From NCBI GenBank assembly GCA_029932675.1, contig JAOZPP010000028.1:1-37290 (forward strand): DNA of 37,290 bases. Direction: 5' to 3'. The DNA is from a bacterium. Its GTDB lineage: Bacteria > SM23-81 > DAOVCL01. Position numbers and translations under genes: made by a program. Below the pieces are notes generated by a model, which was not told the origin of the DNA, did no database searches, and saw nothing but the letters and a program-made list of their open reading frames with translations. Below are positions 1,365-31,213 of this stretch, piece after piece. Numbering within the stretch: position 1 is the stretch's first letter; each line of letters starts with the position of its first letter.

Positions 1365-2819
1365 TTACCTCAATAGGATCATTTTCCTCGTCTCCACGAC
1401 CCCCCCGGCTTGCAGCTTATAGATGTAGATCCCACTGGAGACTCCCTTGCCCGTGGTATCCCTTCCATCCCAAACCACTGAGTAGGCGCCTGGCGCCTGT
1501 TCCATCTCCACCAGCGTCCTCACTGGTTGACCTAAAATGTTGTAAATCTTTAGGCTGACCCGAGGTTGCTGACCGCCAACCGCAGGCAGGTAGTAACGAA
1601 TGAGGGTGGTGGAGTTAAACGGGTTGGGATAGTTTTGGGATAGTAGAAAGGGACCAGGAACTCTCCCCCAGCTCCAAGCTGGGTTGACTTCTACCACATA
1701 GTTGGAGTCTGAGATGGCCCAAGGGGAAAACTCAGTAACACCACTTAAAGTAATGGAGTTAGTCACCGAGTCAGGTTCACCACCCTGGGCGACCCAGCCA
1801 TAACCATTAAACCTGTAAAGCTGCAGGCTTCCCTCAGTGGGCAATCCGGAGCTATCGAATTCAGCCTGGTCATAGATTAAGGTCATCGTGGCTACGAAGT
1901 TAGCTGTGTCCGGATAAGGAAGAATCATAAATGACCGGTAAACCCATAAGTCTCCTGGGCTTCTCTGCGGAGGGAGCATATTAGGATATCCTATAACCGT
2001 GAGACTGTCCAATTCTTCCTCGGAAAAGTTGAAAATGGCTAGGGTATCCCCCTCCTGGGCGAATACTATATCTTCCCCAACCTGGTCTATGGATAGGGTG
2101 ATTCCAGGTTCAGGGACGGCACTGGCTGCCTGGAGGACTTCCTTGGTGGTGTTGCTTTGAGCGAAGACCACAACAGATAAATGATCTGGGTCCCAGTCCT
2201 CGCTAACGGTGAAGTCACGCTCCACCTCAACTGAGTCCCCTGGGGAGGAAATGCTCAGGCTCTCTGAAAGCAACATATCCCTGACCACGAATCGATAATA
2301 CTTCCCCCCGTAGTAGACCGAGTCTTCACAGAGGACGAACTGAATCACCACATTGCTCTCTGTGATGGTGTCCGTCAGAGCGATGTCAGCCCTTACCCTT
2401 CCCTGATCTCCGACGATGGCCTGGCTGGCCCATATGGTTATCGGACTGGGTAAGGTGAGGTGGTCGCTTACAATGGGGTCATAGTATGGAAACATATTCC
2501 CCCCAGGTGGGAGGCCGCCTAGTACATTATCTCCTCCGTCGAAGTAGGCAGAAGGATAGCCTGTCTGCCCATACCAGGTGTAGCGTCCCTCTGTCTCACT
2601 GGTAGCCAAACCATCGTAGACATGATAGATAAGGAGGGCAAGCTCCTCTTTGCCATACTTATCAGCCAACTGGCTGAAGCCCAACTCTGCGCTGGGACAG
2701 TATGGTCACCCAATGTGGGCAATGAGCTCGGCCAGCACAACCCTCTGCGAAGCCAAAGAGGAGCTGACCAACCCAAAGAGCCCAATGACCATAAACAAGA
2801 GAAGTGTAATCTTCTTCAT
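1365..2819 (-). CDS. Secreted thioredoxin-fold protein, predicted selenoprotein (U-P-Y-C), C-terminal sorting domain
   Basis: The ATG at 2819 follows GGAGG with 4 bases spacing and starts a signal peptide (basic M-K-K, then hydrophobic residues, cleavage near A-S-Q). The frame runs 484 codons to TAA at 1365 with a single in-frame TGA at codon 38 (2706-2708). The surrounding residues, V-L-A-E-L-I-A-H-I-G-[TGA]-P-Y-C-P, match the redox loop of secreted Omp28-like/thioredoxin proteins, where Cys-Pro-Tyr-Cys is expected, so TGA stands for the first Cys. The later Y-G-Q-T-G-Y-P-S-A-Y-F-D-G matches the Gly-x-Pro cis-proline segment of that fold. Residues about 400-484 are the type IX-like sorting module ending K-M-I-L-L-R. 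The frame is clean on both sides of the TGA, which favours selenocysteine over decay. A point nonsense mutation or sequencing error is the alternative. Calling without readthrough would start the gene falsely at 2684. Confidence 0.8.
2658..2708 (-). promoter_or_regulatory. UGA codon plus candidate bacterial SECIS hairpin
   Basis: The UGA is at 2706-2708. Reading the mRNA, 34 bases later comes a hairpin with arms CAGCC and GGCUG around the loop AGUU, extended by CUU/AAG across a two-base bulge (2658-2679). A G in the first two loop positions and this distance agree with the loose consensus I know for bacterial SECIS elements. A second possible hairpin (CCCAG/UUGGG, loop CGCAGAG, 2680-2696) lies closer, 14 bases after the UGA. 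I cannot fold it computationally, so which one acts is open. Confidence 0.45.
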
Positions 2820-4318: not shown

Positions 4319-4717
4319 CTATCTGGATGTTGCCACCCTCCCCTTTTCTCTTTTGAACTTCTTTAGGTAGTCCTCTATAGCCTTGTGCAGCCCCTCGGCG
4401 GCCAGATTAGAACAGTGCATCTTGATCGGGGGGAGCCCCTCCAACTCCTCGGCCACATCGTTGCGGGTGAGCTTTAGGGCCTCATCCAAGGTCTTCCCTT
4501 TGGCTAGCTCGGTGACCATACTGCTCGTGGCGATGGCCGCTGCACAACCAAATGTCTTGAACCTTATGTCCTCTATCCGGTTGGCCTTAACCTTTATGTA
4601 GATCTCCATAATATCCCCACAGACGGGGTTTCCCACCCTACCCACTCCATCTGGGTCTTTGATCTCCCCCACATTTCGCGGATGCTGAAAGTGCTCTATC
4701 ACCTTGCGGCTATACAC
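4319..4717 (-). CDS. iscU: Fe-S cluster assembly scaffold IscU/NifU-like
   Basis: 132 residues of the U-type scaffold on which IscS-derived sulfur and iron are built into [2Fe-2S]/[4Fe-4S] clusters in the cytoplasm. The three ligand cysteines are in their usual settings: N-P-V-C33-G-D35, F-G-C58-A-A-A-I-A and M-H-C102-S-N-L-A. The N terminus Y-S-R-K-V-I-E-H-F-Q-H-P-R-N-V-G is typical. The gene overlaps the end of the PurM-like gene by 8 bases and is the last member of the sulfur operon. The basic C-terminal tail after residue 120 is not conserved. Confidence 0.93.
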   Translation of the reverse strand: MYSRKVIEHFQHPRNVGEIKDPDGVGRVGNPVCGDIMEIYIKVKANRIEDIRFKTFGCAAAIATSSMVTELAKGKTLDEALKLTRNDVAEELEGLPPIKMHCSNLAAEGLHKAIEDYLKKFKREKGRVATSR

Positions 4718-5786
4718 TTGGCCCCCCCTTAGGCTTCTCCTTTAGGGCTTGGTAGAATGCCTGCCAGAAGGGGTCGACCCGGGGGTGGAGGAGGGGTTGC
4801 TCCTCACCATCTGTGCAGAGGATCATCCCCTCATCCGGGGGGGTCAACTCCCCCACAACCTGGGAGGTTATCCCCTCAGTGGCCAAGGCATCGACCACAG
4901 CGGTTGCCCTCTCCTTCTTACAGCTAATGATCAGGGTCCCCTCAGATATGGATTTATAAGGGTCTATCCCAAAGAGGCCGCAGATCTTCTCCACTTTCTC
5001 ATCCAGCGGGATTAACCCCTTTTCCACTCTCACCCCCAAGCCTGCTGCTTGGGCCAGCTCATATATACCCCCCCAGACCCCACATTCGGTGGCATCATGC
5101 ATAGCGGTTACCCCCTTAGCCCTCACCCCTACCTTCACTGCGGTGAGGGCATCCTTTACCACGGACATCTGATAGAAGAGCTTTTGGGCCCTTTGAGAGA
5201 AACTTTCTCCGAACCGATCGGCCAAAAGTTGGGGAAAGATGGTGGCAAATATCCCTGATGCCTCAATGGCTGGCCCCTTGGTAACGATGAGTTTATCGCC
5301 GGGGGCAGCTAGCTGCGGGGTAACATACCCATCTATTTCCCCTACAGCCATTAGGGTAGCCCCGCCGACCATAGGATAATGGCAGTTCTCATACCTTGCT
5401 GTGTGCCCACAGATGATGCTTATCCCCAGTTTTTGGCACTCGGTGTGGATCGTCTCCCAAACCCTTTCCAGTTGGGCCTCGGTCATCTCCATCGGGAGGT
5501 TCAAATCTATGGAGAGATATTTCGGAGGGAGGCCGCTGGTGACCAGATCAGAGGCCAGTATATGTACAGCAAACCAGGCCGCCCTCTCCCAACCATACTC
5601 AGGGACTATAAAGACTGGATCCGTGGTTATGGCTACCGCTTGGCCGCCTACCTCCACTATGCCCACATCTACCCCATTCTGGGGACCGACCAATATCTCC
5701 TTGCTCCTCATCCCCAACCGGGGATAGATGAGCTCTTCAAATATCTCCGGGGATATCTTCCCGATCTCTGGAAGTTTAGATTTCAT
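4710..5786 (-). CDS. AIR synthase-related (PurM/HypE superfamily) ATP-binding protein
   Basis: 358 residues with both halves of the PurM fold: an N-terminal dimer and ATP-binding half (G-V-D-V-G-I, A-I-T-T-D-P-V-F, H-I-L-A-S-D-L-V-T-S-G) and a C-terminal half (A-P-G-D-K-L-I-V-T-K-G, T-A-M-H-D-A-T-E-C-G-V-W-G). Relatives (PurM, HypE, ThiL, SelD) use ATP to phosphorylate an amide, an acid or selenide. It lacks the G-C/U-G-x-K motif of SelD and the C-terminal Cys of HypE, so neither role is supported. It sits between the PP-loop enzyme and IscU in an overlapping operon, which suggests a role in sulfur transfer or cofactor maturation. The exact substrate is unknown. Confidence 0.8.
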   Translation of the reverse strand: MKSKLPEIGKISPEIFEELIYPRLGMRSKEILVGPQNGVDVGIVEVGGQAVAITTDPVFIVPEYGWERAAWFAVHILASDLVTSGLPPKYLSIDLNLPMEMTEAQLERVWETIHTECQKLGISIICGHTARYENCHYPMVGGATLMAVGEIDGYVTPQLAAPGDKLIVTKGPAIEASGIFATIFPQLLADRFGESFSQRAQKLFYQMSVVKDALTAVKVGVRAKGVTAMHDATECGVWGGIYELAQAAGLGVRVEKGLIPLDEKVEKICGLFGIDPYKSISEGTLIISCKKERATAVVDALATEGITSQVVGELTPPDEGMILCTDGEEQPLLHPRVDPFWQAFYQALKEKPKGGPSV

Positions 5787-5817
5787 TGTTCCCCTCTGCT
5801 CAAAATATTACTTATCT

Positions 5818-6780
5818 TCAACCTATCCTGTATCTGGCCACCTTATCCTCCTCGAGGGGAGGGACCTCAAATAGGCCGATTTCCTCCTCCTCCCTCCAAA
5901 CCTTCACCCCCACTACCCCCTCCCCGTCGCTATAGCGGGCACAGAGGGAAGCAGCCTCCCTTAGATCCCCTTCCCCTTTTCCCTTCCGCAAAAGGGTGAG
6001 AGGACCGGGAAACCCCACAACTTCAAGGAGCAGATCCTCAGGCCCCACCAAGGAGGAAAGCCTTTCATTCTCTCTCTCGTTTCTCCCCACCACAACCTTT
6101 CCTCCAGAGGGAAGTCTAAAATGGCGTCCCAGCTTGAGGAGTTGCATATCCCTTAGGCTATCCTCCTCGAACTGGAAGGCCTCCTGCAACCGATGGGAGA
6201 AGCCAGGATCGGTGAGCTTGCACCCTCCGGCGGGAGTGGGGTAGCTTTCTATCCCCCAACGGCGGGCCAATTCCATCTGCGGTTTGCGACTCCTCCCCCG
6301 GAGACCCAGAAGAGCCCCCCGGTTTACCCAACCCTCCCTTTCTGGGGTGGTGGGGGGAAGGAGCTTAGCCGAGAGCGGCCTGAGGACCAGTCCTTCCACC
6401 CCGGCCTCTCTTTCTATCAATCTGAAGGTATCCCTCCTTTGGGACATTGGTCTCTGGCCGAGAACCTCACCAGTGACAATGAAGGAGGCCCCCACCTCTT
6501 CCATTAGCTCCTTGGTCCTCCGCAGGGTGTAAATACGGCAGTCTATGCAGGGATTCATATTCTTTCCCCATCCAAAGGAAGGGGATTTGACCAGATCTAT
6601 ATATTCTTGGCCAAAATAGATGCTTCTACATTCTACCTGGGAAAAAGGGGGACGGGAAGCCTTAATCAAGGTAAAGGGGGTGGAGAAGGTGAGGGTCACT
6701 GCCTGAAGCCCCTGCTCCAAGATGAGCTTCAGGGCCAGATTGCTGTCTAAGCCTCCTGAGTAGAGGACCAAGGCCTTCAT
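5818..6780 (-). CDS. PP-loop ATP pyrophosphatase, tRNA thiolase-like (MnmA/ThiI-related)
   Basis: 320 residues starting with the PP-loop Y-S-G-G-L-D-S (7-13) that adenylates a base for thiolation. Cysteines are placed as in tRNA thiolases: N-P-C78-I-D-C81-R in the first half and G-G-C187-K-L-T-D in the second. The middle has V-T-G-E-V-L-G-Q-R-P-M-S-Q-R. The C-terminal part (K-L-G-R-H-F-R-L, V-V-G-R-N-E-R-E-N) looks like the small domain shared with NFACT-R/DUF814 proteins. The start at 6780 overlaps mnmA by 4 bases (ATGA). Two thiolase-like enzymes in one operon suggest different sites or substrates. Which RNA it modifies, or whether it handles RNA at all, is not determined. Confidence 0.75.
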   Translation of the reverse strand: MKALVLYSGGLDSNLALKLILEQGLQAVTLTFSTPFTLIKASRPPFSQVECRSIYFGQEYIDLVKSPSFGWGKNMNPCIDCRIYTLRRTKELMEEVGASFIVTGEVLGQRPMSQRRDTFRLIEREAGVEGLVLRPLSAKLLPPTTPEREGWVNRGALLGLRGRSRKPQMELARRWGIESYPTPAGGCKLTDPGFSHRLQEAFQFEEDSLRDMQLLKLGRHFRLPSGGKVVVGRNERENERLSSLVGPEDLLLEVVGFPGPLTLLRKGKGEGDLREAASLCARYSDGEGVVGVKVWREEEEIGLFEVPPLEEDKVARYRIG

Positions 6781-7817
6781 CCTACCTCCTCTATCCACCC
6801 GCTTCCTAAGACCTTCTCCCCCTGGTAGAAGACGGCCAACTGCCCAGGGGTGATTGCCCTTTGCGGGCTATCGAACCTTACCCTCACCCTCCCCCCTTGG
6901 GGCTCTATCACTGCCGGGGAAGGTTCCTGTCGGCTTCTGATCTTTACCCAAACCCTTGCTTTACCAAGTGGCTCCTCTTCTATCCAGTTGGGCTGGGTTG
7001 CCCAAAGCATCTTCGCATATAGGTCCCTCTCCTCCCCTAAGACTATCTCCTCCATTGGCTTTATTTCCAGCACATAGAGGGGTTTCCCCTCAGCCACCTT
7101 CAACCCCCTCCTCTGGCCAAGGGTAAAACCATAAGGGTTATCTGTGGTTCCCAAGACTCTTCCCCCCCTATCGGTGATCTTTGTCTTCCCACTTCCCAAC
7201 CTTTCCTTGAGGAAAGGGGCCACCCCTCCAGGGGGAAGGAAACAAACCTCCTGGCTTTCCCTTTTCCCCTCTAAGGCTAAGCCCAGCTTTTGCGCCAGCT
7301 CCCTAACTTCCCCTTTCTCTAGCCCTCCTATGGGGAAGAGGATTGAGCCAAGCGTCCTCCTGTCTAACCGGGCTAAGAAGTAGGACTGATCCTTTTGAGC
7401 ATCTACACCTTTTTGCAGGGATAGCCTCCCATTGTGGGCCTCAAGCCGGGCATAGTGGCCAGTGGCCAAGCGCTTAGCTCCCAAGGAGAGAGCTTTCCTC
7501 AGAAGTAGGCCAAACTTTATCCTCTGGTTACAGATCGCACAGGGGTTAGGCGTTCTTCCCCTTTTGTACTCAGCCACGAAATAATCGACTACCTCCCTCT
7601 GAAAGCTGGGTCGCAAATCCAGGGTGTAATGGGGGATAGCAAGCTTCTGGGCTATTCTCCGCGCCGCCCTAACCTCCTGGGGGGAACAGCACCTGGAGCC
7701 CTCCCCCCAGAGGAGCATAGTCAACCCCACAACCTGGTGGCCTTTCTTTTTGAGGAGGGCAGCGGCCACCCCGCTGTCCACACCTCCAGACATAGCCACC
7801 GCCACGAGATCAGCCAT
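6777..7817 (-). CDS. mnmA: tRNA-specific 2-thiouridylase MnmA
   Basis: 346 residues. It makes 2-thiouridine at the wobble position of tRNAs for Lys, Glu and Gln using ATP and IscS-derived sulfur. The PP-loop M-S-G-G-V-D-S is at 9-15. The catalytic cysteines are in N-P-C93-A-I-C-N and E-V-C192-F-L. The central region has A-T-G-H-Y-A-R and K-D-Q-S-Y-F-L, and the C-terminal barrel includes R-R-G-L and R-A-I-T-P-G-Q. Length is normal. It overlaps nadA by 8 bases and the PP-loop gene by 4, in the same operon as iscS, its likely sulfur donor. Confidence 0.95.
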   Translation of the reverse strand: MADLVAVAMSGGVDSGVAAALLKKKGHQVVGLTMLLWGEGSRCCSPQEVRAARRIAQKLAIPHYTLDLRPSFQREVVDYFVAEYKRGRTPNPCAICNQRIKFGLLLRKALSLGAKRLATGHYARLEAHNGRLSLQKGVDAQKDQSYFLARLDRRTLGSILFPIGGLEKGEVRELAQKLGLALEGKRESQEVCFLPPGGVAPFLKERLGSGKTKITDRGGRVLGTTDNPYGFTLGQRRGLKVAEGKPLYVLEIKPMEEIVLGEERDLYAKMLWATQPNWIEEEPLGKARVWVKIRSRQEPSPAVIEPQGGRVRVRFDSPQRAITPGQLAVFYQGEKVLGSGWIEEVG

Positions 7818-8718
7818 ACTTCAACATCCTATCTAAGGCTTTTCTTGCCCCCTCTATTATAGTTTGGGGAAGTTCCACCTTAAACTTCTCCTCCTTAAGC
7901 GATAAATAGACATCCTCTAATCTTGTATACTTCATACTTCGGCACATCCTGGCCGGTCCAGCGGAGTAGAACCTCTTTCCTGGGTTCTCCCTCCGCAGCC
8001 TGGCGATCAACCCCTCTTCGGTGCCGATGATGAACTCCTCCGCGGAGAGTTCCCTGGCTAGCCTGACCATCCCCCCTGTGCTCTCCACCCTATCGGCAAG
8101 ATCAACCACCTCTGGCCTGCACTCTGGATGGACGATGACCACTGCCTGGGGGTGGAGCCTCTTCGCCTCCTTTACCTCCTCTGCAGTAAATCTCTCATGG
8201 ACATAACAATAGCCATTCCAAGGAATTATGTGCTTAGAGGTAAATCGAGCCACCCAGGAAGCTAAGTTCCGATCGGGGACAAAGATGACCTCATCCTCCT
8301 TCAGGTTCTGTACCACCTTCACCGCATTGGCTGATGTGCAGCAGACATCAGACTCGGCCTTCACCTCTGCTGTGGTGTTTACATAGCTCACCACCACGGC
8401 CTGAGGATGGCTGGCCTTCAATCCCCTCAGTTCTGGAAGACTCACCATGGCAGCCATCTGGCAGAGGGCCTCCTTGCGGGGAAGGAGGATGGTCTTCTCC
8501 GGGGAGAGGATCTTTGCCGATTCGGCCATAAACTTCACCCCACAGAAGCAGATAAGCTGGGCTTTAGCATCCCTGGCTTTGCGGGAGAGATCTAAGGAAT
8601 CGCCCAAGAAATCGGCGATCTCCTGGATCTCCGGAGACTGGTAGTTATGGACCAGGATCAAGGCTCCCTTCTCCCTCTTCAGCTCCCTAATCTTTGTCCT
8701 TAAGCTCTCCCCCCTCAT
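7810..8718 (-). CDS. nadA: Quinolinate synthase NadA
   Basis: 302 residues, the usual size of the short NadA form. It condenses iminoaspartate and dihydroxyacetone phosphate to quinolinate for NAD synthesis, using a [4Fe-4S] cluster. Visible motifs: H-N-Y-Q near residue 25, G-D-S-L-D-L-S near 40, C86 in E-A-L-C-Q-M-A, C-T-S-A-N-A near 127, C171 in N-G-Y-C-Y-V-H-E, H-P-E-C near 200 and C259 in G-P-A-R-M-C. C86, C171 and C259 are spaced like the three cluster ligands of studied NadA. It overlaps iscS by 4 bases. Neither nadB nor nadC is in the window. Its cluster need explains the placement next to iscS. Confidence 0.95.
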   Translation of the reverse strand: MRGESLRTKIRELKREKGALILVHNYQSPEIQEIADFLGDSLDLSRKARDAKAQLICFCGVKFMAESAKILSPEKTILLPRKEALCQMAAMVSLPELRGLKASHPQAVVVSYVNTTAEVKAESDVCCTSANAVKVVQNLKEDEVIFVPDRNLASWVARFTSKHIIPWNGYCYVHERFTAEEVKEAKRLHPQAVVIVHPECRPEVVDLADRVESTGGMVRLARELSAEEFIIGTEEGLIARLRRENPGKRFYSAGPARMCRSMKYTRLEDVYLSLKEEKFKVELPQTIIEGARKALDRMLKYG

Positions 8719-9884
8719 AGCGGCCTCCTCTTGCCAAATGGGGAGATTGCCCTCAGTTTCTCCACAATAGGGGGAAGGACCTCGATTACCTTCTCAACCT
8801 CTTCTTCAGTGGTTTTCCTTCCTAGGCTGAAGCGCAAGGATCCATGGGCCACCTCAGGGGGGATCCCCATCGCAGTGAGCACATGGGAAGGTTCCAGGGA
8901 GCCAGAGGTGCAGGCTGAGCCGCTGGAGGCGGCAATTCCCTCCATATCGAGGTTGAGAAGCATCGATTCACCCTCCACATATTTTACGCAGAGGTTCAAG
9001 GTGCCGGCAAGCCTCCTCTCTGGGTGACCATTGAGGAGGATATCGTCTATCCGGGAGGAGAGACCCTCCCAGAGCCTATTCCTCAGCCCCTTCACCCTCT
9101 CCTCATCCTCTATCCCCTCTTGGGCCATCTGACAGGCCTTGCCCAGTCCGACGATTCCAGGGACATTCTCCGTTCCTGCCCTCATCCCCCTTTCATGCTC
9201 GCCTCCATGATGGAAGGGGTGTAGCTTTGTCCCCTTTCTAATATAGAGGGCACCGATTCCCTTTGGCCCATAGAACTTATGGCCGGAGAGCGAAAGGAGG
9301 TCGACCCCAAGTTCTCCTACATTTAGAGGCAGTTTGCCCACCACCTGAACGGCATCGGTATGGAATGGTATTCCCCTCTCCTTGGCCAGCCTGGCGATCT
9401 CCTCCACCGGTTCGATCGTCCCCACCTCGTTGTTAGCGAACATAATGCTGATTAGGATCGTCTGATCGGTTATGGAATCGGAGATCTGATCGATATCTAC
9501 TAACCCATATCTGTCCACATCAGCCCAAGTCACCCGAAATCCAAGTCCTTCCAAGTACCGACAGACATTGAGAATCGAGTGGTGTTCTATCTTTGAGGTG
9601 ATGATGTGGGTGCCCTTCTCCTTTGCTGCCCACGCCACTCCCTTTATCGCCCAATTGTTCGCCTCTGTCCCGCCGCTGGTGAAGTATATCTCCGATGGGT
9701 CAGCCCCTAAGAGGTCAGCTACTTTTTCCCTAGCCGTCTCCACTGCCTCCCTGGCCTCCTGGGCAAGCCTATAGATGCTTGATGGATTACCATATCCTTC
9801 CCTTAGCCAAGGAACCATAGCCTCCAACACCTCCGGAGCCATAGGGGTAGTGGCGTTGTGGTCCATATATATTATATCCGACAT
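8715..9884 (-). CDS. iscS: Cysteine desulfurase IscS/NifS
   Basis: 389-residue PLP enzyme that takes sulfur from cysteine as a persulfide and passes it to IscU, MnmA and other acceptors. Motifs: M-D-H-N-A-T-T-P at 7-14, G-G-T-E-A-N-N near 71, the PLP lysine in S-G-H-K203-F-Y-G-P-K-G and the persulfide Cys in S-S-G-S-A-C325-T-S-G. I use the ATG at 9884, preceded by a strong GGGGAGG, not the 27-codon upstream extension that overlaps the rrf2 gene. It lies 37 bases after rrf2. Confidence 0.96.
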   Translation of the reverse strand: MSDIIYMDHNATTPMAPEVLEAMVPWLREGYGNPSSIYRLAQEAREAVETAREKVADLLGADPSEIYFTSGGTEANNWAIKGVAWAAKEKGTHIITSKIEHHSILNVCRYLEGLGFRVTWADVDRYGLVDIDQISDSITDQTILISIMFANNEVGTIEPVEEIARLAKERGIPFHTDAVQVVGKLPLNVGELGVDLLSLSGHKFYGPKGIGALYIRKGTKLHPFHHGGEHERGMRAGTENVPGIVGLGKACQMAQEGIEDEERVKGLRNRLWEGLSSRIDDILLNGHPERRLAGTLNLCVKYVEGESMLLNLDMEGIAASSGSACTSGSLEPSHVLTAMGIPPEVAHGSLRFSLGRKTTEEEVEKVIEVLPPIVEKLRAISPFGKRRPL

Positions 9885-9921
9885 CCCTCCCCCCTTTTTA
9901 TTCAAGAACCCTTCCGGGTTA

Positions 9922-10341
9922 CTACTCCCTGGGTTTCCCCTTCTGGGAAAGTTGGCAGAGGTCAAAAAGGGTCCTGGATGAGAGAAATCCTTTTATACTC
10001 CCATACAACCCTTCCCAGTACCTGCGGGCCACACATTTTGGTGCCCTTTCACAGATCCCTTCTAAACAGAAAACCGGAGCCAATGTTCCCTCCACCCCCT
10101 CAAGGATATCCATAATGGTGATCTCCTTGCTCTTCTTACCCAGAAGATACCCCCCATTAACCCCCCTTACTGTCCTGATCAACCCAGCCTTTTTTAGCTT
10201 CAGAAATATCTGCTCCAAATACTTCTCCGAGATCCCCTCTTTTCTCGCTATCTCCCGTAGGGTTAAAGGGTCTCCATTTTGGTCTAAGGCTAAGGCAAGC
10301 ATAGCCCTTACCGCGTATCGTCCTTTAGTGGAAAGCTTCAT
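9922..10341 (-). CDS. Rrf2-family transcriptional regulator, IscR-like
   Basis: 139-residue winged-helix regulator starting M-K-L-S-T-K-G-R-Y-A-V-R-A-M. The Rrf2 hallmarks are clear: L-R-E-I-A-R-K-E-G-I-S-E-K-Y-L-E-Q-I, and G-G-Y-L-L in the wing. Three cysteines, C92, C97 and C103, sit almost exactly where IscR holds its [2Fe-2S] cluster (C92, C98, C104), so it probably senses cluster status and controls the operon it heads. The start at 10341 is just after a perfect-looking promoter; the 12 codons upstream would lie inside that promoter and are rejected. Confidence 0.92.
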   Translation of the reverse strand: MKLSTKGRYAVRAMLALALDQNGDPLTLREIARKEGISEKYLEQIFLKLKKAGLIRTVRGVNGGYLLGKKSKEITIMDILEGVEGTLAPVFCLEGICERAPKCVARRYWEGLYGSIKGFLSSRTLFDLCQLSQKGKPRE

Positions 10342-10348
10342 CGTTAAT

Positions 10349-10377
10349 ATAATACTAAAATGGTAGGGTATTGTCAA
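10349..10377 (-). promoter_or_regulatory. Sigma70-type promoter of the isc operon with possible Rrf2 operator
   Basis: On the minus strand TTGACA (10372-10377) and TATTAT (10349-10354) are separated by 17 bases. Only seven bases lie between the -10 box and the rrf2 ATG, so transcription should begin at or next to the start codon, giving a leaderless mRNA; no ribosome site exists. The spacer holds the dyad AATAC/GTATT with an ATACCCTAC half resembling IscR type 1 sites, which fits self-repression. Confidence 0.75.
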
Positions 10378-11379: not shown

Positions 11380-14300
11380 ATGAGAACATCCTTCAGCAGA
11401 TCAATCCCTCTTTTGTTATTGGCCCTCAGTGGAGCTCTCTCTTGGCTTTCACTGGCGCCAGGGGGGGTGTTAAAGGGATCCCTAAGGTTCTCCAAGTCTG
11501 AACTTAAATTCAGCAAACAGAAGGGATACGATCAGGTGACCCTGTCTGGTTGTGACCTCACCGCAAAGCCAGGGGAACCTCAACTGCCGGTTTACATAGC
11601 CAATCTGGTCATCCCAGATGGGATGAGAGTGGAAGGGGTGGAGGTTCTCTCTACAGAAGGTGAGGACCTTCCGGGGAACTACCTTCTCTATCCTGTCCAA
11701 CCACCTCAAATCCTCTCTAAAGGGGAACCCACCCCTTTTGTCCAGCCCAAACCCACAATATACAATTCATCCATTTATCCTCAAAAGATTGTCGAATATA
11801 AGGGCGCGGGCTCTCTAAGTGGGTATCGGGTGGCTAGCTTCTTGGCCTATCCACTCCAATATCTACCAGCGAAAGGGCTGTTACGTTTCTATTCCCAGGT
11901 CGATTTTGCCGTCAGACTTGTCCCCGGCCCAAAACATTTCTCCAGCAAGAGATCCAAGAGGGCAGAAGAGGCCGTCCAACGCATAGTAGGTTCCCTAGTC
12001 CTCAATCGGCAAGCCATGGGAAAAGATCAATCTCGTAGAGCAAAGGTCCCCACCCTCCTGCCGCCTGGGGAGTTTGAGTATCTGATCATCACCGATGACC
12101 TCTATGTTCCATACTTCAAGCCCTTGGCGGACTGGAAATTGAAGAAAGGATTGAGGGATACAATTGTAACAACATCCTGGATCTACTCCACCTACTCAGG
12201 CTATGACCATCCAGAGCAAATCAGAAACTTCCTCAAGGATGCCTATCAAAATTGGGGAACGGTTTGGGTTCTCCTGGGAGGGGATACAAATATCATCCCA
12301 GCCAGGATAGCCTATGCAATGACCTGTGAGGCCGGTTATCAGCCTGAGGATGAAGATAGCATCCCCTGTGATCTCTATTACTCTGATCTGGATGGAACCT
12401 GGGATCTAAATGGCAACCATATCTATGGGGAGGTAGCCGATAGTGTGGATATGTGGCCAGATATCTGGGTGGGTAGGGCTTCGGTAGGGAGCCTACAAGA
12501 GACCCAGGCTTGGGTAGGTAAGGTCCTAACCTATGAGAAGAGCCCACCAACAGATTATCAGCTTGCTATGCTCTTCGCTGCTATGGTCCTATGGTGGGAT
12601 CCCTATACCGACTCAGGCATTGGCAAGGATATGATCGATGACCTATGGGTTCCCCCGCGGTTTGACCCAATCACCAAGCTTTACGAATCCCAAGGGAACG
12701 AAAGCCCTTCATCGGTAATTGCGGCGATGAACGCAGGCCAAAACATCATCAACCATGATGGGCATGGCTGGATCTGGCTTTTAGGGGTGGGAAATGGTTA
12801 TCTGGACAACCAGGATATGGACAACCTCACCAATGGGGATAGGCAGTCCATCCTCCTCTCCATTGGTTGTTGGACGGGGGCTTTTGACTATGACTGCATC
12901 GCCGAACATTTCATCACCAATCCAAATGGTGGAGGGGTAGCCTATATAGGGAACTCCAGATATGGTTGGGGGTCTCCGGGAAATCCAGGCTATGGCTATT
13001 CGGATAGATTTGACAGCCACTTCTACAGATGCCTCTTTAAGGACGATATCTACAATATAGGGGCTACATTGGCTCTCGACAAGGCGTTCTACATTCCCCG
13101 GGCCCAACAGGAAAACGTGTATCGCTGGTGTGAATACCAGATAAATCTCCTGGGCGATCCGGAGATGCCCATTTGGACCGATACCCCTGAGAGCCTTATC
13201 GTTGTGCATCCAGACAGCGTTCCCACCGGAGAAAGCCTATTCCTGGTCACCGTAATGGCCAACTCCTCCCCTCTCAGCGGGGCTTTGGTGTGTGTAATGA
13301 ATCAAAGTGGGCTCTATAAGAATGGACTCACAGGCACCGATGGTCAAATAAGCTTTCCCATTCAACCAACCACCCAAGGAACTCTATGGGTGACGGTTAC
13401 TGCCCACAACTATCTGCCCTATGAGGGGTACACAACCGTCTTTTCTAATGGACCCCATGTGGGCTGTTATAGAGAGGCTATCTTTGATACCCTTCAGGGG
13501 AATGGGGACGGGGTAATCAACCCCGGTGAGGAGATCTCCTTGGCCATCACCCTGAAAAACTATGGTAACCAATCATCCAGCGATGTTACCGGGGTTCTAT
13601 CCATTGATGACTCGATGGTAACGATTTTAGACAGCCTGGGGGAATACGATCAGATCCTCCCGGGGGATACTTCCCAAACCTTGAGTTATGGATTCTCGGT
13701 CTCCCCTGATTGTCCTAACGGTAAGGTCCTATCATTTAACCTCAGGATTGCAGATGCCCAAAGTAATTTCTGGAATGAGAGGTTGAACTTGGTTGTCGCT
13801 AGCCCCTTCCTGAGCTTTCAGACCTATCAGATAGATGATGGCTTCGGAGGCGATGGGGACTCTGTCCCCGAACCAGGGGAATCCTTTGACTTAGGTTTGC
13901 ACCTGAAGAATGGGGGGTTGGCTTTAGCTCGGGGGGTGACGGTCAGGGTCCATACAGAAGATCCCTATTTGAGTCTGACGGATACAGTCGCCGATTTTGG
14001 GGATATCTGGCCGGACTCGACCATCGAGGAGACCTATAGGATGAGCGTCTTAGCAGGTTGTCCTCTACCTAATTTCCCAGCGGTGTATATGGAGATTCAA
14101 ACCGAGGAGGGATATTCCTTCCAGGACAACCTTATCCTCACCATAGGGGAGACGGGATTCTCCGATGATATGGAAGCTGGTCCAGATGGATGGAGCCATT
14201 CCGGTGGAGGTGATCTCTGGAACATATCTACCTATAGAAGCCATTCTGGATCGCATAGTTGGTACTGTGGCCGAGATCCTATCCATCAATACGAAGATGG

Positions 14301-14961
14301 GATGAACTGCTCCCTTACTACCCCACCTTTCGTGCTGGCCCCCAATTCCAGTCTCTGCTTCTGGCATTGGTACGATGTCACTATCTATGGAGTGGATGGA
14401 CTTTATGTGGAAATCCTTAGGGGTCCTAAAGCCGATACTTTAGACTTTATTGGCAGTGGAGGGGCCTTAGACTCCCTGCTCATCGGAAATGATTGGTTAG
14501 AGGAGAACTATGACCTCTCCCCCTACGGGTTTGGGGATACGGTGCAGGTGAGGTTTACATTTGTTAGCGACGATAGTGAAGTGGCTGAGGGCTTCTACAT
14601 CGACGATGTCAATGTAAAGGGAAGCCACTCGGTCCAGTTGGGCACTGGGCAGATAGAACAGATCCTCGTCCATCCAACCCTCTTTCAGCTTGACCAGAAC
14701 TACCCAAATCCGTTTAATTCAAATACAGCGATCAGCTATCGATTGTCAGCGGTCGGCGGTAAGGCCGTCAGCTTAAAGGTCTATAATATCTTAGGGCAGG
14801 AGGTGAGGACTCTGGTCGATGGAGTGGAGAGAGCTGGAATTTATAACGTCATCTGGGATGGTAGGGATGACAGGGGTAGGGAGGTAACTTCCGGGGTATA
14901 TTTTTATAGGTTGAAGATGGGCCGTTTCAGTCAGACGAGGAAGATGGTTATCCTCAAGTGA
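11380..14961 (+). CDS. Secreted gingipain-type peptidase (C25) with sorting domain
   Basis: 1193 residues, start ATG after AAGGGGGGAAG. Order: signal peptide (1-28); C25 propeptide-like region (about 30-210); caspase-like catalytic domain with the dyad H462 in I-I-N-H-D-G-H-G and C497 in S-I-G-C-W-T-G (about 220-600); Ig-like domain (about 605-690); two CARDB-like repeats that begin N-G-D-G-V-I-N-P-G-E-E and G-D-G-D-S-V-P-E-P-G-E; a MAM/jelly-roll-like region near 930-1085; and the sorting module from D-Q-N-Y-P-N-P-F-N to K-M-V-I-L-K. It should be exported by a type IX-like system and anchored or released after tag removal. Substrate unknown. It is the only plus-strand member of the surface set. 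Confidence 0.9.
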   Translation: MRTSFSRSIPLLLLALSGALSWLSLAPGGVLKGSLRFSKSELKFSKQKGYDQVTLSGCDLTAKPGEPQLPVYIANLVIPDGMRVEGVEVLSTEGEDLPGNYLLYPVQPPQILSKGEPTPFVQPKPTIYNSSIYPQKIVEYKGAGSLSGYRVASFLAYPLQYLPAKGLLRFYSQVDFAVRLVPGPKHFSSKRSKRAEEAVQRIVGSLVLNRQAMGKDQSRRAKVPTLLPPGEFEYLIITDDLYVPYFKPLADWKLKKGLRDTIVTTSWIYSTYSGYDHPEQIRNFLKDAYQNWGTVWVLLGGDTNIIPARIAYAMTCEAGYQPEDEDSIPCDLYYSDLDGTWDLNGNHIYGEVADSVDMWPDIWVGRASVGSLQETQAWVGKVLTYEKSPPTDYQLAMLFAAMVLWWDPYTDSGIGKDMIDDLWVPPRFDPITKLYESQGNESPSSVIAAMNAGQNIINHDGHGWIWLLGVGNGYLDNQDMDNLTNGDRQSILLSIGCWTGAFDYDCIAEHFITNPNGGGVAYIGNSRYGWGSPGNPGYGYSDRFDSHFYRCLFKDDIYNIGATLALDKAFYIPRAQQENVYRWCEYQINLLGDPEMPIWTDTPESLIVVHPDSVPTGESLFLVTVMANSSPLSGALVCVMNQSGLYKNGLTGTDGQISFPIQPTTQGTLWVTVTAHNYLPYEGYTTVFSNGPHVGCYREAIFDTLQGNGDGVINPGEEISLAITLKNYGNQSSSDVTGVLSIDDSMVTILDSLGEYDQILPGDTSQTLSYGFSVSPDCPNGKVLSFNLRIADAQSNFWNERLNLVVASPFLSFQTYQIDDGFGGDGDSVPEPGESFDLGLHLKNGGLALARGVTVRVHTEDPYLSLTDTVADFGDIWPDSTIEETYRMSVLAGCPLPNFPAVYMEIQTEEGYSFQDNLILTIGETGFSDDMEAGPDGWSHSGGGDLWNISTYRSHSGSHSWYCGRDPIHQYEDGMNCSLTTPPFVLAPNSSLCFWHWYDVTIYGVDGLYVEILRGPKADTLDFIGSGGALDSLLIGNDWLEENYDLSPYGFGDTVQVRFTFVSDDSEVAEGFYIDDVNVKGSHSVQLGTGQIEQILVHPTLFQLDQNYPNPFNSNTAISYRLSAVGGKAVSLKVYNILGQEVRTLVDGVERAGIYNVIWDGRDDRGREVTSGVYFYRLKMGRFSQTRKMVILK
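14728..14762 (+). repeat. Seven-base-periodic DNA inside the sorting domain
   Basis: Five consecutive seven-base units (GCGATCA, GCTATCG, ATTGTCA, GCGGTCG, GCGGTAA) encode the loop between the first strand (A-I-S-Y) and the V-Y-N-I-L-G-Q strand of the tag. Confidence 0.55.
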
Positions 14962-15022: not shown

Positions 15023-15115
15023 TGGCGGAGAGAGAGGGATTCGAACCCTCGTCCCGATTCACATCGGGAACACGATTTCCAGTCGTGCACCTTCGGCCAG
15101 CTCGGTCATCTCTCC
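15023..15115 (-). tRNA. tRNA-Ser (anticodon GGA)
   Basis: 93 bases with encoded CCA. The acceptor stem GGAGAGA pairs with TCTCTCC less one, the anticodon loop is CTGGAAA, a long variable arm (TTCCCGATGTGAATCGGGA) marks class II, and the T arm has GGTTCGAATCC. It reads UCC/UCU codons. Confidence 0.95.
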
Positions 15116-15128
15116 CCAAAGCCTTTTC

Positions 15129-15219
15129 TGGCGGAGAGGGAGGGATTTGAACCCCCGGTCCCCGAAGGGGACAGCGGTTTTCGAGACCGCCCCGTTAAGC
15201 CTAACTCCGGCACCTCTCC
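15129..15219 (-). tRNA. tRNA-Ser (anticodon CGA)
   Basis: 91 bases with encoded CCA. The acceptor stem is GGAGAGG, the anticodon loop CTCGAAA within GGT...ACC, a long variable arm (GTCCCC TTCG GGGAC) is present and the T arm has GGTTCAAATCC. It reads UCG. Separated from the next tRNA-Ser by 13 bases. Confidence 0.95.
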
Positions 15220-15942: not shown

Positions 15943-15962
15943 TAGTCTGATCCTTCACTTAG

Positions 15963-16036
15963 CGCGCCCGGAGGGAGTCGAACCCCCACCCTCCTGATCC
16001 GTAGTCAGGCGCTCTATCCAATTGGGCTACGGGCGC
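15963..16036 (-). tRNA. tRNA-Arg (anticodon ACG)
   Basis: 74 bases. The acceptor GCGCCCG pairs with CGGGCGC, the anticodon stem CCTGA/TCAGG holds the loop CTACGGA and the T arm contains GGTTCGACTCC. Unlike the nearby serine tRNAs its CCA is not encoded (GCT follows), so CCA must be added enzymatically. A34 is the TadA target. Confidence 0.95.
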
Positions 16037-24829: not shown

Positions 24830-27800
24830 CTACTTCAGGAGGATCATCCTCCTGGTTTGCACAAAATCTCCTGCCTGAATCCGGTATATGTATATCCCAC
24901 TGGCCAACTCCCTGCCGGCATTGTCCCTTCCATCCCACCTCACCTGGTAGTAGCCAGGAGTCTGTGGCTCATCCACCAAAGTCCTCACCACCTGCCCTAA
25001 GATGTTGTAGACCTTTAAACTAACGGAGCTCGTGCTCGTAGTTTGTGCTCGTGAACCCCCCTCCCCTGACTGCCCTTGACGAACTACGGGTAACGAGTAA
25101 CGAATCACAGTAACAGGGTTAAAGGGATTGGGGTAGTTCTGGTAAAGCTCCAACCACTGAGGCAAGCTGAGACCGGAGATGTGCCTCTTCGGTTGTCCTG
25201 GGTTTCCAATGGATGCGTGGAGGATCAACAGAGGACAGACCGCCAGGTCGCCGGATAGCCCGGAAATAGAAATCATAATCTGCCCGTCTGCATAACAGGT
25301 ATCCGGAAGCAGCACAACCATCTTCACCACGCTATCTGAGGGGACCTCGACCTCCTCATCAATTGCCCCATCAATCTGCAGCCTCTGCCTTAGCTCTTCT
25401 TCCATTTGATGATAGAATATTACCTCCAGCCCATATTCCTTCCCAGGGTCTAAATCAGAGAGCCTATAGATCAGGGCAGCAGAGCTATAATCAACGGACT
25501 GAAACATCAAAGAACCATAGGAGATGTAGCCGTCCCTCTGCACCGTCTCCGGCAGGGGTTCCTCCTGTCCCAGGTTGAAGAGATAGAGTGTCTGATCATG
25601 GGGACAGCCAAGGTCGACCTCCCGGGAATCAAAACCGAGCACCCAGGTCCCGCTTACCGCTTCCGTCCAGGAGGTGTAGAGCCTCAGGGAGGCTTCACCT
25701 TCAGGCAGGGCAAGAATTTGGGGATAGGAAGAGGGGGCTTGAGGGGAATGGGAGATATTGCCCTCATCTACCCAACCAAAATCAGGACAATACCTCTTCA
25801 GCAGGATATCCTGGCCACCTTCCTCCCTCTCCTCACTCCAGGCAACGATCCCTTTCTCTACCACCGGTGAACGAGATGCAAGCCCAGGGCTCTGGCTGAC
25901 ATCATCGGTTTCTTCTAACACCCCACCGATGAGTTGGGCACAATAAACCTCTCCACCTGCCTCCCAGCTAATCCAGACCTTGGAGTCATAGCAGTCAAGG
26001 GATGGATTCCGAGAGTTCACCCCAGGGCTTTGGGAAACATTCACTATGGTGGAAAAGTTTGCTCCATCCCATTGCCCATAGTAGATCTCCCCATCCTTCT
26101 CCCAGCTTATATGAACCTTTCCTTGGGTGTCCACATCCAGGCTGGGACCAGGTTCAGGCGGAGGTGGCGGAGGGTTATGATGATGGTCATAATCGGCCAC
26201 ACAGAGCATCTCCCGCCGCTCCAAGGACACCTTGTCCCCTCCCTGCAGGCTGTCAAAGGGGAAGTATTGGAAGCCTCCGGGGTTCTCTAAGTCGAAATAG
26301 CCTAAATAGTATCTCTTGGGAGACTCCTTCAACAAATACCAGGCCACATAACCCTTATCAGCCCCTTTATCCACGGCAAAACCCGGGGCACTAAAATCCA
26401 AATGGACCATTCGAGTTAAAGTAACCGCATTATCCCACCAGTCATCACCAAGTTCATATTTATTGTATTTGAGCAAATCGTTTTGGGGGTAGACCATAAG
26501 GGCCTCCCCCTGGCTGTTTATATCTACAGCAACCCTTCCAACTTTTGCATTGCCCACCCGTTTGTTGGTCCAGTTTAGGCCTCCATCCTCGGAGATGGTA
26601 TACCAGGCCCAATCAGAGGACAAGCCAGAGGACGAGAAACAGACCATAAGCTTATCGGAATCAAACTGCACAAGCCTGTGGGCGTTATTGAAGGATGTGG
26701 CCTCAGATGAGCTGACCGTTAGGCCAACCTGGGAGGAACCGAGCCAGGGGAAATACAAGCCGTTCTTGGTTACCGTAACTAACATCTGACCTGGCTTCTG
26801 AGGGGAGATAATGAAATTAGCGATTCCATCTTCACCAGTATAACCGACCCTATAGAGGTCACCCACCTCCTTGTAGAGGCAGACGGTGGCATTGGCCACT
26901 GGAATCCCATTTGATTGCACTGCGACCGAGAACGAACCGTTCCCTACTGGAACAAGCTCTGGATAGGACACCTGCAGGCTCTCTGGAGTCCCCAACCAGA
27001 CCGGCATTGCAGGGTCACCCAAGAGGGTAAACGAGGAAAGTTCATCGGATTGGGCGTAGAAGGCATAGAACCAATTTTCCCAGGCAGAGCATTCCTCTGG
27101 GGTCCAGAAGTCAAAGCCATCTTTGGCAAGGGTCAATGCCTGGCCAAGGGAACTCTGATGGAGGATGAGCGAGTTGAGGAAGGGTCTATCGAGATGCTCC
27201 CAGGGGCCCATAGCATCTCCCACTACCCCCCAACCGAAGCTGCTGTGGCCAAGGAAACAGGCTCCCCCGCCATTGGGGTTGGTGATCCAGTGGGCCGCCA
27301 GGCAGCTATCCGGAGACTTGTCAAAGGGCGCGCTCAAGCAGGCAGCGGTGGAGAAGAGGCCATACTTTTTGCCATTGATGAACCCATCGAAATCCTCTGT
27401 AGTAAGGACATTTAGCCTGTTGTTAAAACTCTCCGCATCCGGATCCATAGAGATGATCCCATAGTTCCCATGACCACAGTGGTTGATAAAGCGGTAGCCA
27501 TGGTTGATCTGAGTTGTGGCCTTGATTTTGTTTATCAAGCCGGGGGGAGGTGTAGACGGTGGATAATTCACATCATAGAGCCTATACCCGCTCATCCCCA
27601 GATCGGCCACTGTGCTGTCCTTCTTCACCCCACCGGAGGTCTCCATGTCAATAATAGCTCCCAAGAGGAGGAAATCGTTATCAGCATAGGCAGAATCAGG
27701 ATCAAACTCATAATCCAACACCTTCTGCACAAACAGTTCAACCTCATCTCGATTGGAGACCTGTGCCCGGCCCAAGTAGATCTCCGGGCGGTAGTCCAGA

Positions 27801-28906
27801 ACCATCCACTCCATAACGGGCCACTCCTCCCCATGCACCTCTATGGTGTCCACTGGCGTCCAGACCTCCCCATAGACCCCATTATGGTTGGGGTCCCAGT
27901 CCCCATCCAGACAGCAGTAATAGAGATCAGAGGCAAAGTCCGGCTCATGGTGGAGGGCAGCAGCCCCCTTCCTTACTCTGCCCGGCACCACCTTCCCATC
28001 TCCACCCAAGAGCACCCACTGGGTGCCCATCCGGGAATACCAGTCCTTGATGAAATACCTGATCCGCTCCTGGATGTCACTTCCCGGATAGAGCTGGCCA
28101 TAGATCTGGTCGATTAGCTCCAGGGTGTAGATGACCGTGCGCAGCCCCCTCCTGGTATTCCAGTCGGCCAAGGGTTGGAAGCTATCGGCCAGGGAATCCG
28201 GGGTGATGATCACATAGGTCTGGGCCGAATCCAGGCTGAGCACCTCAGGTTGAGGCCCATAGAGCTCCACATCCTCTGGATTGGCCACCAGGTCCTTAAC
28301 CAGTGCCACATATTCATCCTGCTGGTTCTGGGTTCTTCTCTCCACCGGTGCAGACCAGTTCTCCGTGGGTTCGAGCTCCAGAGAATAGTTGAAGCTATAC
28401 AGCCAGAGCTTGCCAGTGGAGGGGATATACTGCAGGGGGTGGATGGAGATATCCACCAGCTTCCAGCCTCCAATGAAGCTTTCATAACCTGAACTGGCCA
28501 GGATGCCTGGATAAGGCTCAGAGGAGGAGTAGATCTCCGAATCAGGTTCGGTAAACCCAGGAGGTGGAGAGAAATTCAGGGGATATGCTGGCTGACCGGG
28601 ATAGAGGTTATAGGTTCCCGGGATCTCTACCGAGTCCACACCAGTAATGGTAAAGCCTGAAACCTTCATATCCCGGGGGATGACAAACTTCATTCGGAGC
28701 ACTGGCAGAGACGGTGCCCCTGCTATCCCCATATTCTCACAGCCAGGCAGAAAAACCACATCATACCCTTCAGACTGGCTGAAGGAAAGTTGTGATGGAC
28801 CATAGCCCACACTCTTCTGTAACATAGCAGAAGCATCTCCTCCGGCTAAAACAGAGATAGCCAAAACAGCCGAGGAGATAACGAAGAACTTCCTCAAAGC
28901 TCTCAT
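24830..28906 (-). CDS. Large secreted gingipain-type peptidase (C25) with sorting domain
   Basis: 1358 residues from the ATG at 28906, which has AAAGGAG six bases upstream and opens a signal peptide (M-R-A-L-R-K-F-F ... A-S-A). An in-frame ATG at 28969, with its own AGGAGGG, would add 21 residues; both could be used. Order: propeptide-like region; C25 catalytic domain with H479 in I-N-H-C-G-H-G and C523 in T-A-A-C-L-S-A; Ig-like domain near 650-740; a propeller-like region with Asp-box fragments (near 760-1030, including S-W-E-A-G-G-E-V and V-A-W-S-E-E); a carbohydrate-binding-like region near 1120-1240; and the sorting module ending M-I-L-L-K. The catalytic dyad suggests activity. The linker of the tag holds seven-base-periodic DNA (25028-25055, 25077-25104). 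Confidence 0.9.
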   Translation of the reverse strand: MRALRKFFVISSAVLAISVLAGGDASAMLQKSVGYGPSQLSFSQSEGYDVVFLPGCENMGIAGAPSLPVLRMKFVIPRDMKVSGFTITGVDSVEIPGTYNLYPGQPAYPLNFSPPPGFTEPDSEIYSSSEPYPGILASSGYESFIGGWKLVDISIHPLQYIPSTGKLWLYSFNYSLELEPTENWSAPVERRTQNQQDEYVALVKDLVANPEDVELYGPQPEVLSLDSAQTYVIITPDSLADSFQPLADWNTRRGLRTVIYTLELIDQIYGQLYPGSDIQERIRYFIKDWYSRMGTQWVLLGGDGKVVPGRVRKGAAALHHEPDFASDLYYCCLDGDWDPNHNGVYGEVWTPVDTIEVHGEEWPVMEWMVLDYRPEIYLGRAQVSNRDEVELFVQKVLDYEFDPDSAYADNDFLLLGAIIDMETSGGVKKDSTVADLGMSGYRLYDVNYPPSTPPPGLINKIKATTQINHGYRFINHCGHGNYGIISMDPDAESFNNRLNVLTTEDFDGFINGKKYGLFSTAACLSAPFDKSPDSCLAAHWITNPNGGGACFLGHSSFGWGVVGDAMGPWEHLDRPFLNSLILHQSSLGQALTLAKDGFDFWTPEECSAWENWFYAFYAQSDELSSFTLLGDPAMPVWLGTPESLQVSYPELVPVGNGSFSVAVQSNGIPVANATVCLYKEVGDLYRVGYTGEDGIANFIISPQKPGQMLVTVTKNGLYFPWLGSSQVGLTVSSSEATSFNNAHRLVQFDSDKLMVCFSSSGLSSDWAWYTISEDGGLNWTNKRVGNAKVGRVAVDINSQGEALMVYPQNDLLKYNKYELGDDWWDNAVTLTRMVHLDFSAPGFAVDKGADKGYVAWYLLKESPKRYYLGYFDLENPGGFQYFPFDSLQGGDKVSLERREMLCVADYDHHHNPPPPPPEPGPSLDVDTQGKVHISWEKDGEIYYGQWDGANFSTIVNVSQSPGVNSRNPSLDCYDSKVWISWEAGGEVYCAQLIGGVLEETDDVSQSPGLASRSPVVEKGIVAWSEEREEGGQDILLKRYCPDFGWVDEGNISHSPQAPSSYPQILALPEGEASLRLYTSWTEAVSGTWVLGFDSREVDLGCPHDQTLYLFNLGQEEPLPETVQRDGYISYGSLMFQSVDYSSAALIYRLSDLDPGKEYGLEVIFYHQMEEELRQRLQIDGAIDEEVEVPSDSVVKMVVLLPDTCYADGQIMISISGLSGDLAVCPLLILHASIGNPGQPKRHISGLSLPQWLELYQNYPNPFNPVTVIRYSLPVVRQGQSGEGGSRAQTTSTSSVSLKVYNILGQVVRTLVDEPQTPGYYQVRWDGRDNAGRELASGIYIYRIQAGDFVQTRRMILLK

Positions 28907-29059
28907 TTTCACTCCTTTCTTGGTTTCAACTTTCAGCTTCACATCTGAAAAGCTCTTTATGTCTTGCATTTTGTCCCTCCTTCTAAGGCTAACGGCTACT
29001 GACCCAAAAATCTTCTAAGTAAACATCTTCATCACCTCCAGGATTCAACCCTCCCTGTG

Positions 29060-31153: not shown

Positions 31154-31213
31154 TCCACCTTCTTTCTCTAAAAAGTTATTTGAATCCACCACCCAACGAG
31201 GTTCCCACAGAGG

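What the first reader, a model, noticed from the sequence alone, without database searches (positions are those of the whole stretch)
1365..2819. Predicted secreted selenoprotein with U-P-Y-C redox motif and a type IX-like export tag
The gene has one in-frame TGA, at codon 38, placed exactly where the first Cys of a thioredoxin-type C-P-Y-C would be, and the frame is intact for 37 codons before and 446 after. The fold signs on both sides (beta strand V-L-A-E-L-I-A, later G-x-P-S-A-Y-F-D-G) make a random stop unlikely. A secreted Omp28/thioredoxin-like selenoprotein bearing a C-terminal sorting domain is, to my knowledge, unusual. Automatic annotation would drop the signal peptide and active site. 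The genes for selenocysteine insertion are not in this window.
Basis: partly seen in the sequence, partly recalled or inferred. Interest (0 to 1): 0.88.

Follow-up and report, generated by a model that had tools for sequence, protein, structure and literature searches.

The report
Surface-exported selenocysteine thioredoxin-like protein
A bacterium from an uncultured lineage encodes a thioredoxin-like redox protein whose active site is predicted to hold selenium and which carries an address tag for export to the cell surface; it extends a little-studied selenoprotein family that turns out to occur in many bacterial groups.

Summary
The gene at 2819-1365 (-) has one in-frame TGA, codon 38, in U-P-Y-C, and reading it as a stop is wrong. 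The host genome has tRNA-Sec next to selB, plus selA and selD. Among homologs from 290 diverse genomes, 39 distinct proteins carry exactly one TGA in the domain; all 39 have it at the first residue of U-x-x-C, where Cys homologs have Cys. A hairpin follows the TGA. Across seven such genes it sits at the same distance with the same AGUU loop and covarying stem, and Cys homologs mostly lack such hairpins. AlphaFold predicts a thioredoxin plus beta-sandwich fold whose best PDB match is P. gingivalis HBP35, a surface thioredoxin exported by the type IX system. The C-terminal tag passes the T9SS sorting-domain cut-off, and the genome has SprA and PorU. The kind is known: GOS_C (2008), now NCBIfam NF045500 'Omp28-related selenoprotein'. 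This protein scores 62.8 against that family's cut-off of 200, and I found no paper on the T9SS tag, which 21 of the 39 carry. Best reading: a divergent, T9SS-tagged variant of a known selenoprotein kind. Redox role inferred, not tested.

The parts
1365..2819 (-). Complete gene of the Omp28/thioredoxin-like selenoprotein (484 aa with Sec, TAA stop)
   Evidence: NF045500 62.8 bits (cut-off 200), TIGR04183 37.3 bits (cut-off 23)
2706..2708 (-). In-frame TGA, codon 38, read as selenocysteine (U of U-P-Y-C)
   Evidence: same column is TGA in 39 distinct proteins (window included) and Cys in the others
2745..2819 (-). Signal-peptide-like N-terminus (MKKITLLLFMVIGLFGLVSSSLASQ), no lipobox Cys
   Evidence: Read; hydrophobic N-termini also in homologs; no predictor run
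2662..2677 (-). Predicted bacterial SECIS hairpin UCAGCC-AGUU-GGCUGA, 34 nt from the UGA to its apical loop
   Evidence: covariation over 7 genes
2115..2762 (-). Omp28-type module: thioredoxin fold (U38, C41, probable cis-Pro P89) followed by a beta sandwich
   Evidence: Domain model pLDDT 88.8, pTM 0.88; Foldseek top hit 5y1a HBP35, TM 0.78
1368..1661 (-). C-terminal type IX sorting domain (Por_Secre_tail / FlgD_ig type)
   Evidence: TIGR04183 above cut-off; PF13860 35.8 bits above cut-off 27; many more copies in the genome
2820..2829 (-). Ribosome-binding site (AGGAGGAAGG) directly upstream of the ATG
   Evidence: Sequence

Best explanation
The gene encodes a selenoprotein. During translation, SelB with tRNA-Sec reads UGA codon 38 as selenocysteine, directed by a hairpin (AGUU loop) 34 nt downstream [predicted from machinery, homologs and RNA covariation]. 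The product crosses the inner membrane by its N-terminal signal peptide. It folds in the periplasm into a thioredoxin domain with a U-P-Y-C active site and a probable cis-Pro, followed by an Omp28-type beta sandwich [fold predicted]. Its C-terminal domain hands it to the type IX machine (SprA/PorU), which places it on or outside the cell surface [inferred from the tag and the presence of the machine]. There it works as a thiol:disulfide oxidoreductase, most likely a reductase or isomerase of extracytoplasmic disulfides, much as P. gingivalis HBP35 does with Cys [inferred]. Its partner and substrate are unknown.
For: Sec machinery: tRNA-Sec 77.5 bits (ARAGORN calls it tRNA-SeC, anticodon tca), selB 378 bits adjacent to it, selA 552 bits, selD 369 bits. 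Homologs: 39 distinct proteins with a single TGA in the domain, all at U-x-x-C. Of the 25 genomes (19 families) with a TGA match, 24 have tRNA-Sec above cut-off, against 11 of 25 Cys-only genomes, Fisher p = 1e-4. Tree: well-supported branches force at least 6 changes of the Sec/Cys state. SECIS: hairpin energies -7.1 (TGA members) vs -1.8 kcal/mol (Cys members), p = 2.6e-8; 7 genes with AGUU loop at the same distance, 93.9% of stem cells paired, 10 doubly changed cells, 0 of 500 shuffles as high. Fold. T9SS: tag, SprA and PorU; 16 of 17 genomes with tagged TGA members have SprA over cut-off, while the two TGA genomes with no SprA match at all (G132, G269) encode untagged proteins. HBP35 has shown thioredoxin activity (PMC2907840) and Por-dependent export (PMC3120885).
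Against: No protein or selenium data. The window's own hairpin taken alone is not exceptional: 2.7% of codon positions in the window's ORFs have one as good, and p = 0.13 against synonymous-codon shuffles. The score is below the NF045500 cut-off. One TGA genome (G028) showed no tRNA-Sec under stricter filters. The direction of the redox reaction and the final location are inferred. The contig comes from an incomplete assembly, and reads were not available.
Confidence: 0.86

Rival explanations
1. Selenoprotein, but kept in the periplasm or at the inner face of the outer membrane; the C-terminal Ig-like tail is structural and not an export signal.
For: 18 of 39 distinct TGA members lack a detected tail, so the redox module occurs without it. 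The tail also matches the Ig-like domain of FlgD, a flagellar protein (PF13860).
Against: The tail passes the TIGR04183 cut-off. It is shared with well over 100 other proteins of the genome, including C25 peptidases of this window, and SprA and PorU are present.
Confidence: 0.13
2. Decayed gene or sequencing error: TGA is a real stop and the protein is broken.
For: One contig only, no reads; the window's own SECIS hairpin alone is not significant against synonymous shuffles.
Against: The frame is intact on both sides with a signal-peptide-like start and RBS. TGA is at the same column in homologs of many lineages. Covarying SECIS stem. Full Sec machinery.
Confidence: 0.01
3. TGA is read as another amino acid genome-wide or by suppression.
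For: None found.
Against: 10 of the 19 main ORFs checked in the window end in TGA; the column is Cys, not Trp, in homologs; a tRNA-Sec with anticodon tca is present.
Confidence: 0.005
4. Translation starts after the TGA (TTG at 2684), giving a 439-aa protein without Sec, as automatic annotation would call it.
For: A mechanical ORF exists.
Against: It lacks the signal peptide, the first thioredoxin strand and the U-x-x-C, all conserved in homologs; the RBS is upstream of the ATG at 2819.
Confidence: 0.01

Closest known systems
NCBIfam NF045500 Omp28-related selenoprotein = hypothetical protein GOS_C (Zhang & Gladyshev 2008, PMC2398784; listed in PMC13188914)
   Same: Thioredoxin-like fold, one Sec in UxxC, bacterial SECIS-like element, Cys homologs; best family hit for the domain.
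   Different: 62.8 bits against a cut-off of 200; U-P-Y-C; carries a T9SS sorting tail; not from surface-ocean GOS reads. Eight other members of the radiation found here score 29-74 bits, also below the cut-off.
Porphyromonas gingivalis HBP35 (PDB 5y1a)
   Same: Best structural match, TM 0.78. Thioredoxin domain plus T9SS C-terminal domain; thioredoxin activity shown (PMC2907840); Por/T9SS-dependent surface export shown (PMC3120885).
   Different: Cys, not Sec; 13% identity; haem-binding role not indicated here.
Omp28 outer membrane lipoprotein family (PF11551, NF033782; PDB 2r2c)
   Same: Same module; PF11551 25.7 bits, NF033782 27.5 bits; fold match TM 0.63 by target length.
   Different: Both scores below cut-off; here no lipobox Cys, and Sec replaces the first redox Cys.

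Membership tests
Bacterial selenoproteins | In-frame TGA aligned with Cys of homologs | tested here: met
   39 of 39 distinct TGA proteins at the same column; Cys elsewhere
Bacterial selenoproteins | selA, selB, selC, selD in the genome | tested here: met
Bacterial selenoproteins | SECIS: 4-16 bp stem, 3-9 nt loop with G in first two positions, 16-37 nt from UGA, MFE <= -7.5 (PMC13188914) | tested here: met
   6 bp, loop AGUU, 34 nt, -8.7 kcal/mol; covariation
Bacterial selenoproteins | Sec shown in the protein | not testable with these tools
   No proteomic or labelling data
NF045500 / GOS_C Omp28-related selenoprotein | Score over the curated cut-off of 200 bits | tested here: not met
   62.8 bits
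NF045500 / GOS_C Omp28-related selenoprotein | Thioredoxin-like fold with UxxC | tested here: met
T9SS type A cargo | C-terminal sorting domain TIGR04183 over cut-off | tested here: met
   37.3 vs 23 bits
T9SS type A cargo | T9SS translocon and sortase in the genome | tested here: met
   SprA 758.7 bits summed, PorU 750 bits
T9SS type A cargo | Secreted or surface-bound in a T9SS-dependent way | not testable with these tools
   Needs an experiment
Omp28 family (PF11551 / NF033782) | Score over curated cut-offs | tested here: not met
   25.7 vs 34.9 and 27.5 vs 150 bits

The most novel reading that the evidence does not exclude
A large, mostly unannotated radiation of selenocysteine thiol oxidoreductases is exported by the type IX system to the surface of bacteria of many lineages: selenium redox chemistry placed outside the cell, with repeated Sec/Cys exchange and at least one SECIS type (AGUU loop, 34 nt) conserved by position and covariation across distant lineages.
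Probability: 0.65. Interest if true: 0.66.

Novelty: new variant of a known kind. Interest (0 to 1): 0.52.

Why it matters
A Sec oxidoreductase with a type IX sorting tag would put a costly, oxidation-sensitive residue on the cell surface or outside the cell, which makes it testable whether uncultured lineages run extracellular selenium redox chemistry. The family is probably under-annotated: the existing NCBI model has a cut-off that neither the window protein nor the eight other members tested pass, and a TGA read as stop truncates the gene call. The set found here (39 Sec and 36 Cys domains on one tree) is ready material for studying Sec/Cys switching and SECIS evolution.

Tried and rejected
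The alignment that included the window protein had no stretch conserved enough for the GTDB scan; a four-sequence alignment worked but found only three loci, from two named Zixibacteria genomes. Full-length P0001 searches were swamped by the sorting tail, so the N-terminal domain was searched alone. The full-length AlphaFold model was poor in the middle and C-terminal part (mean pLDDT 60.1), so the domain was remodelled. Rejected: pseudogene, alternative genetic code, downstream start (see rivals). The window's SECIS hairpin was tested against synonymous shuffles and is not significant by itself; the claim rests on the covariation and the contrast with Cys homologs. A literature search for selenoprotein with T9SS found one unrelated paper, and Omp28 with selenoprotein found none; only open-licence papers are held, so absence there is weak evidence of novelty.

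Full report
1. Observation. Reading window 2819-1365 (-) through TGA gives 484 residues ending in TAA, with one TGA, codon 38 (2708-2706), in the motif HIG-U-PYCPS. There is a strong ribosome-binding site (AGGAGGAAGG) before the ATG and a signal-peptide-like N-terminus.

2. Machinery. The genome (G000, 3.03 Mb, 97% complete) has tRNA-Sec (77.5 bits, C9:5462-5552) about 50 bases before selB (378 bits, C9:5606), and selA (552 bits) and selD (369 bits) elsewhere. TGA is an ordinary stop otherwise: 10 of the 19 main ORFs checked in the window end in it.

3. Homologs. In the same phylum, G003 and G002 encode relatives with the TGA at the same column: TSCY-U-GAC, TSTT-U-GAC, TSTM-U-FDC, TNCY-U-GAC. 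Two Cys relatives read TSVN-C-MPC and TSVN-C-GPC. The named scan identifies these genomes as Zixibacteria SM23_81 and CSMAG_1598, so the window very probably comes from the Zixibacteria group. A search of 290 diverse genomes with the domain profile hit 50. I read the matches flagged with one TGA, except one short fragment (G180), and the leading Cys matches. All 39 distinct TGA proteins, the window's included, have the TGA at the first position of U-x-x-C. Counting G180, 25 genomes of 19 families have a TGA match. Of these, 24 have tRNA-Sec over cut-off, against 11 of 25 genomes with Cys forms only (Fisher p = 1.0e-4). On the tree of 75 domains Sec/Cys changes 14 times by parsimony, and well-supported branches force at least 6 changes; the deep branching is weak. 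The window protein is nearest in sequence (39%) to U-P-Y-C protein L084 of another lineage, not to the Zixibacteria relatives (26-30%).

4. SECIS. After the TGA of the window gene a 6-bp stem with loop AGUU starts its loop 34 nt from the TGA, -8.7 kcal/mol, within the published model (PMC13188914). On its own this is weak: 2.7% of codon positions in the window's ORFs have one as good, and p = 0.13 against synonymous shuffles. The wider 53-nt fold is in the lowest 0.3% of ORF windows, z = -4.1. Across TGA members hairpins average -7.1 against -1.8 kcal/mol at the same place in Cys members (p = 2.6e-8; 40 TGA rows including one duplicate). Not every TGA member fits: a few (for example L103, L115, L116) show no hairpin under this strict model. 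Seven genes of five genomes share loop AGUU at exactly 34 nt. Their stems covary: four of seven pairs change on both sides, 10 doubly changed cells, no shuffle as high on paired cells or covariation score, and sliding the partner destroys the pairing.

5. Fold and export. The domain model (pLDDT 88.8, pTM 0.88) shows a beta strand, U-P-Y-C at the start of helix 1, a second strand, Pro89 before the next strand (the usual cis-Pro place; Pro is invariant in the seven-sequence alignment), then a beta sandwich. The best PDB match is HBP35 of P. gingivalis (5y1a, E 9.7e-11, TM 0.78); Omp28 of P. gingivalis (2r2c) also matches. The last 98 residues pass the T9SS sorting cut-off, and more than 100 copies of such tails occur in the genome. 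SprA and PorU are present. In 21 of the 39 distinct TGA proteins the same kind of tail is found in the DNA held. Of the 17 genomes concerned, 16 have SprA over cut-off, and the two TGA genomes with no SprA match encode short, untagged forms.

6. Function. Supported by computation: Sec position, machinery, fold, tag. Inferred: decoding as Sec, export, thiol:disulfide oxidoreductase activity. HBP35 provides the precedent for a surface thioredoxin using T9SS (PMC2907840, PMC3120885). Whether this protein reduces, isomerises or detoxifies is open; U-P-Y-C resembles the glutaredoxin C-P-Y-C (own knowledge), which favours a reductase.

7. Known or new. The kind is known: GOS_C was predicted from ocean metagenomes in 2008 with 74 Sec and 312 Cys sequences (PMC2398784) and is NF045500 today. 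The window protein (62.8 bits) and the eight other members tested (29-74 bits) are below its cut-off of 200, so strict membership is not met although fold, motif and Sec position agree. No paper joining T9SS and this selenoprotein family was found in the searchable literature. I therefore call it a new variant of a known kind.

Noticed in passing
window 4319-10377 (-): Upstream cluster with Rrf2/IscR, class V aminotransferase (IscS-like), NadA, MnmA-type tRNA thiolase, ThiI/NFACT-R protein, an AIR-synthase-like protein (4710-5786, 49 bits to SelD, below cut-off) and NifU/IscU: looks like sulfur trafficking with an odd SelD-like member.
   Followed up: partly
window 11380-14961 (+) and 24830-28969 (-): Two large C25 (gingipain-family) peptidases with type IX tails; 29624-31192 and 31250-32077 also carry the tail.
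   Followed up: partly
whole genome G000: About 150 matches to the sorting tail in 3 Mb (capped at 150 scored): a very large putative T9SS cargo set in a small candidate phylum.
   Followed up: no
L059, L065, L067 (G003 contig C53): Omp28 paralogs side by side in one genome: two with Sec, one with Cys, and a further fragment at the contig end.
   Followed up: partly
window 2662-2677 and L084, L119, L101, L105, L106, L107: The SECIS loop region is CAG TTG (Gln-Leu at U+12/U+13) in all seven genes: the RNA element may constrain the protein's helix 1.
   Followed up: no
L114 (genome G028) and genome G001: G028 has a TGA member but no tRNA-Sec was detected (stricter filters); G001, in the same genus as the window, has tRNA-Sec but no match to the domain.
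   Followed up: no
window 15023-15219 and 15962-16036 (-): Tandem tRNA-Ser (gga, cga) and a tRNA-Arg (acg) between gene blocks.
   Followed up: no
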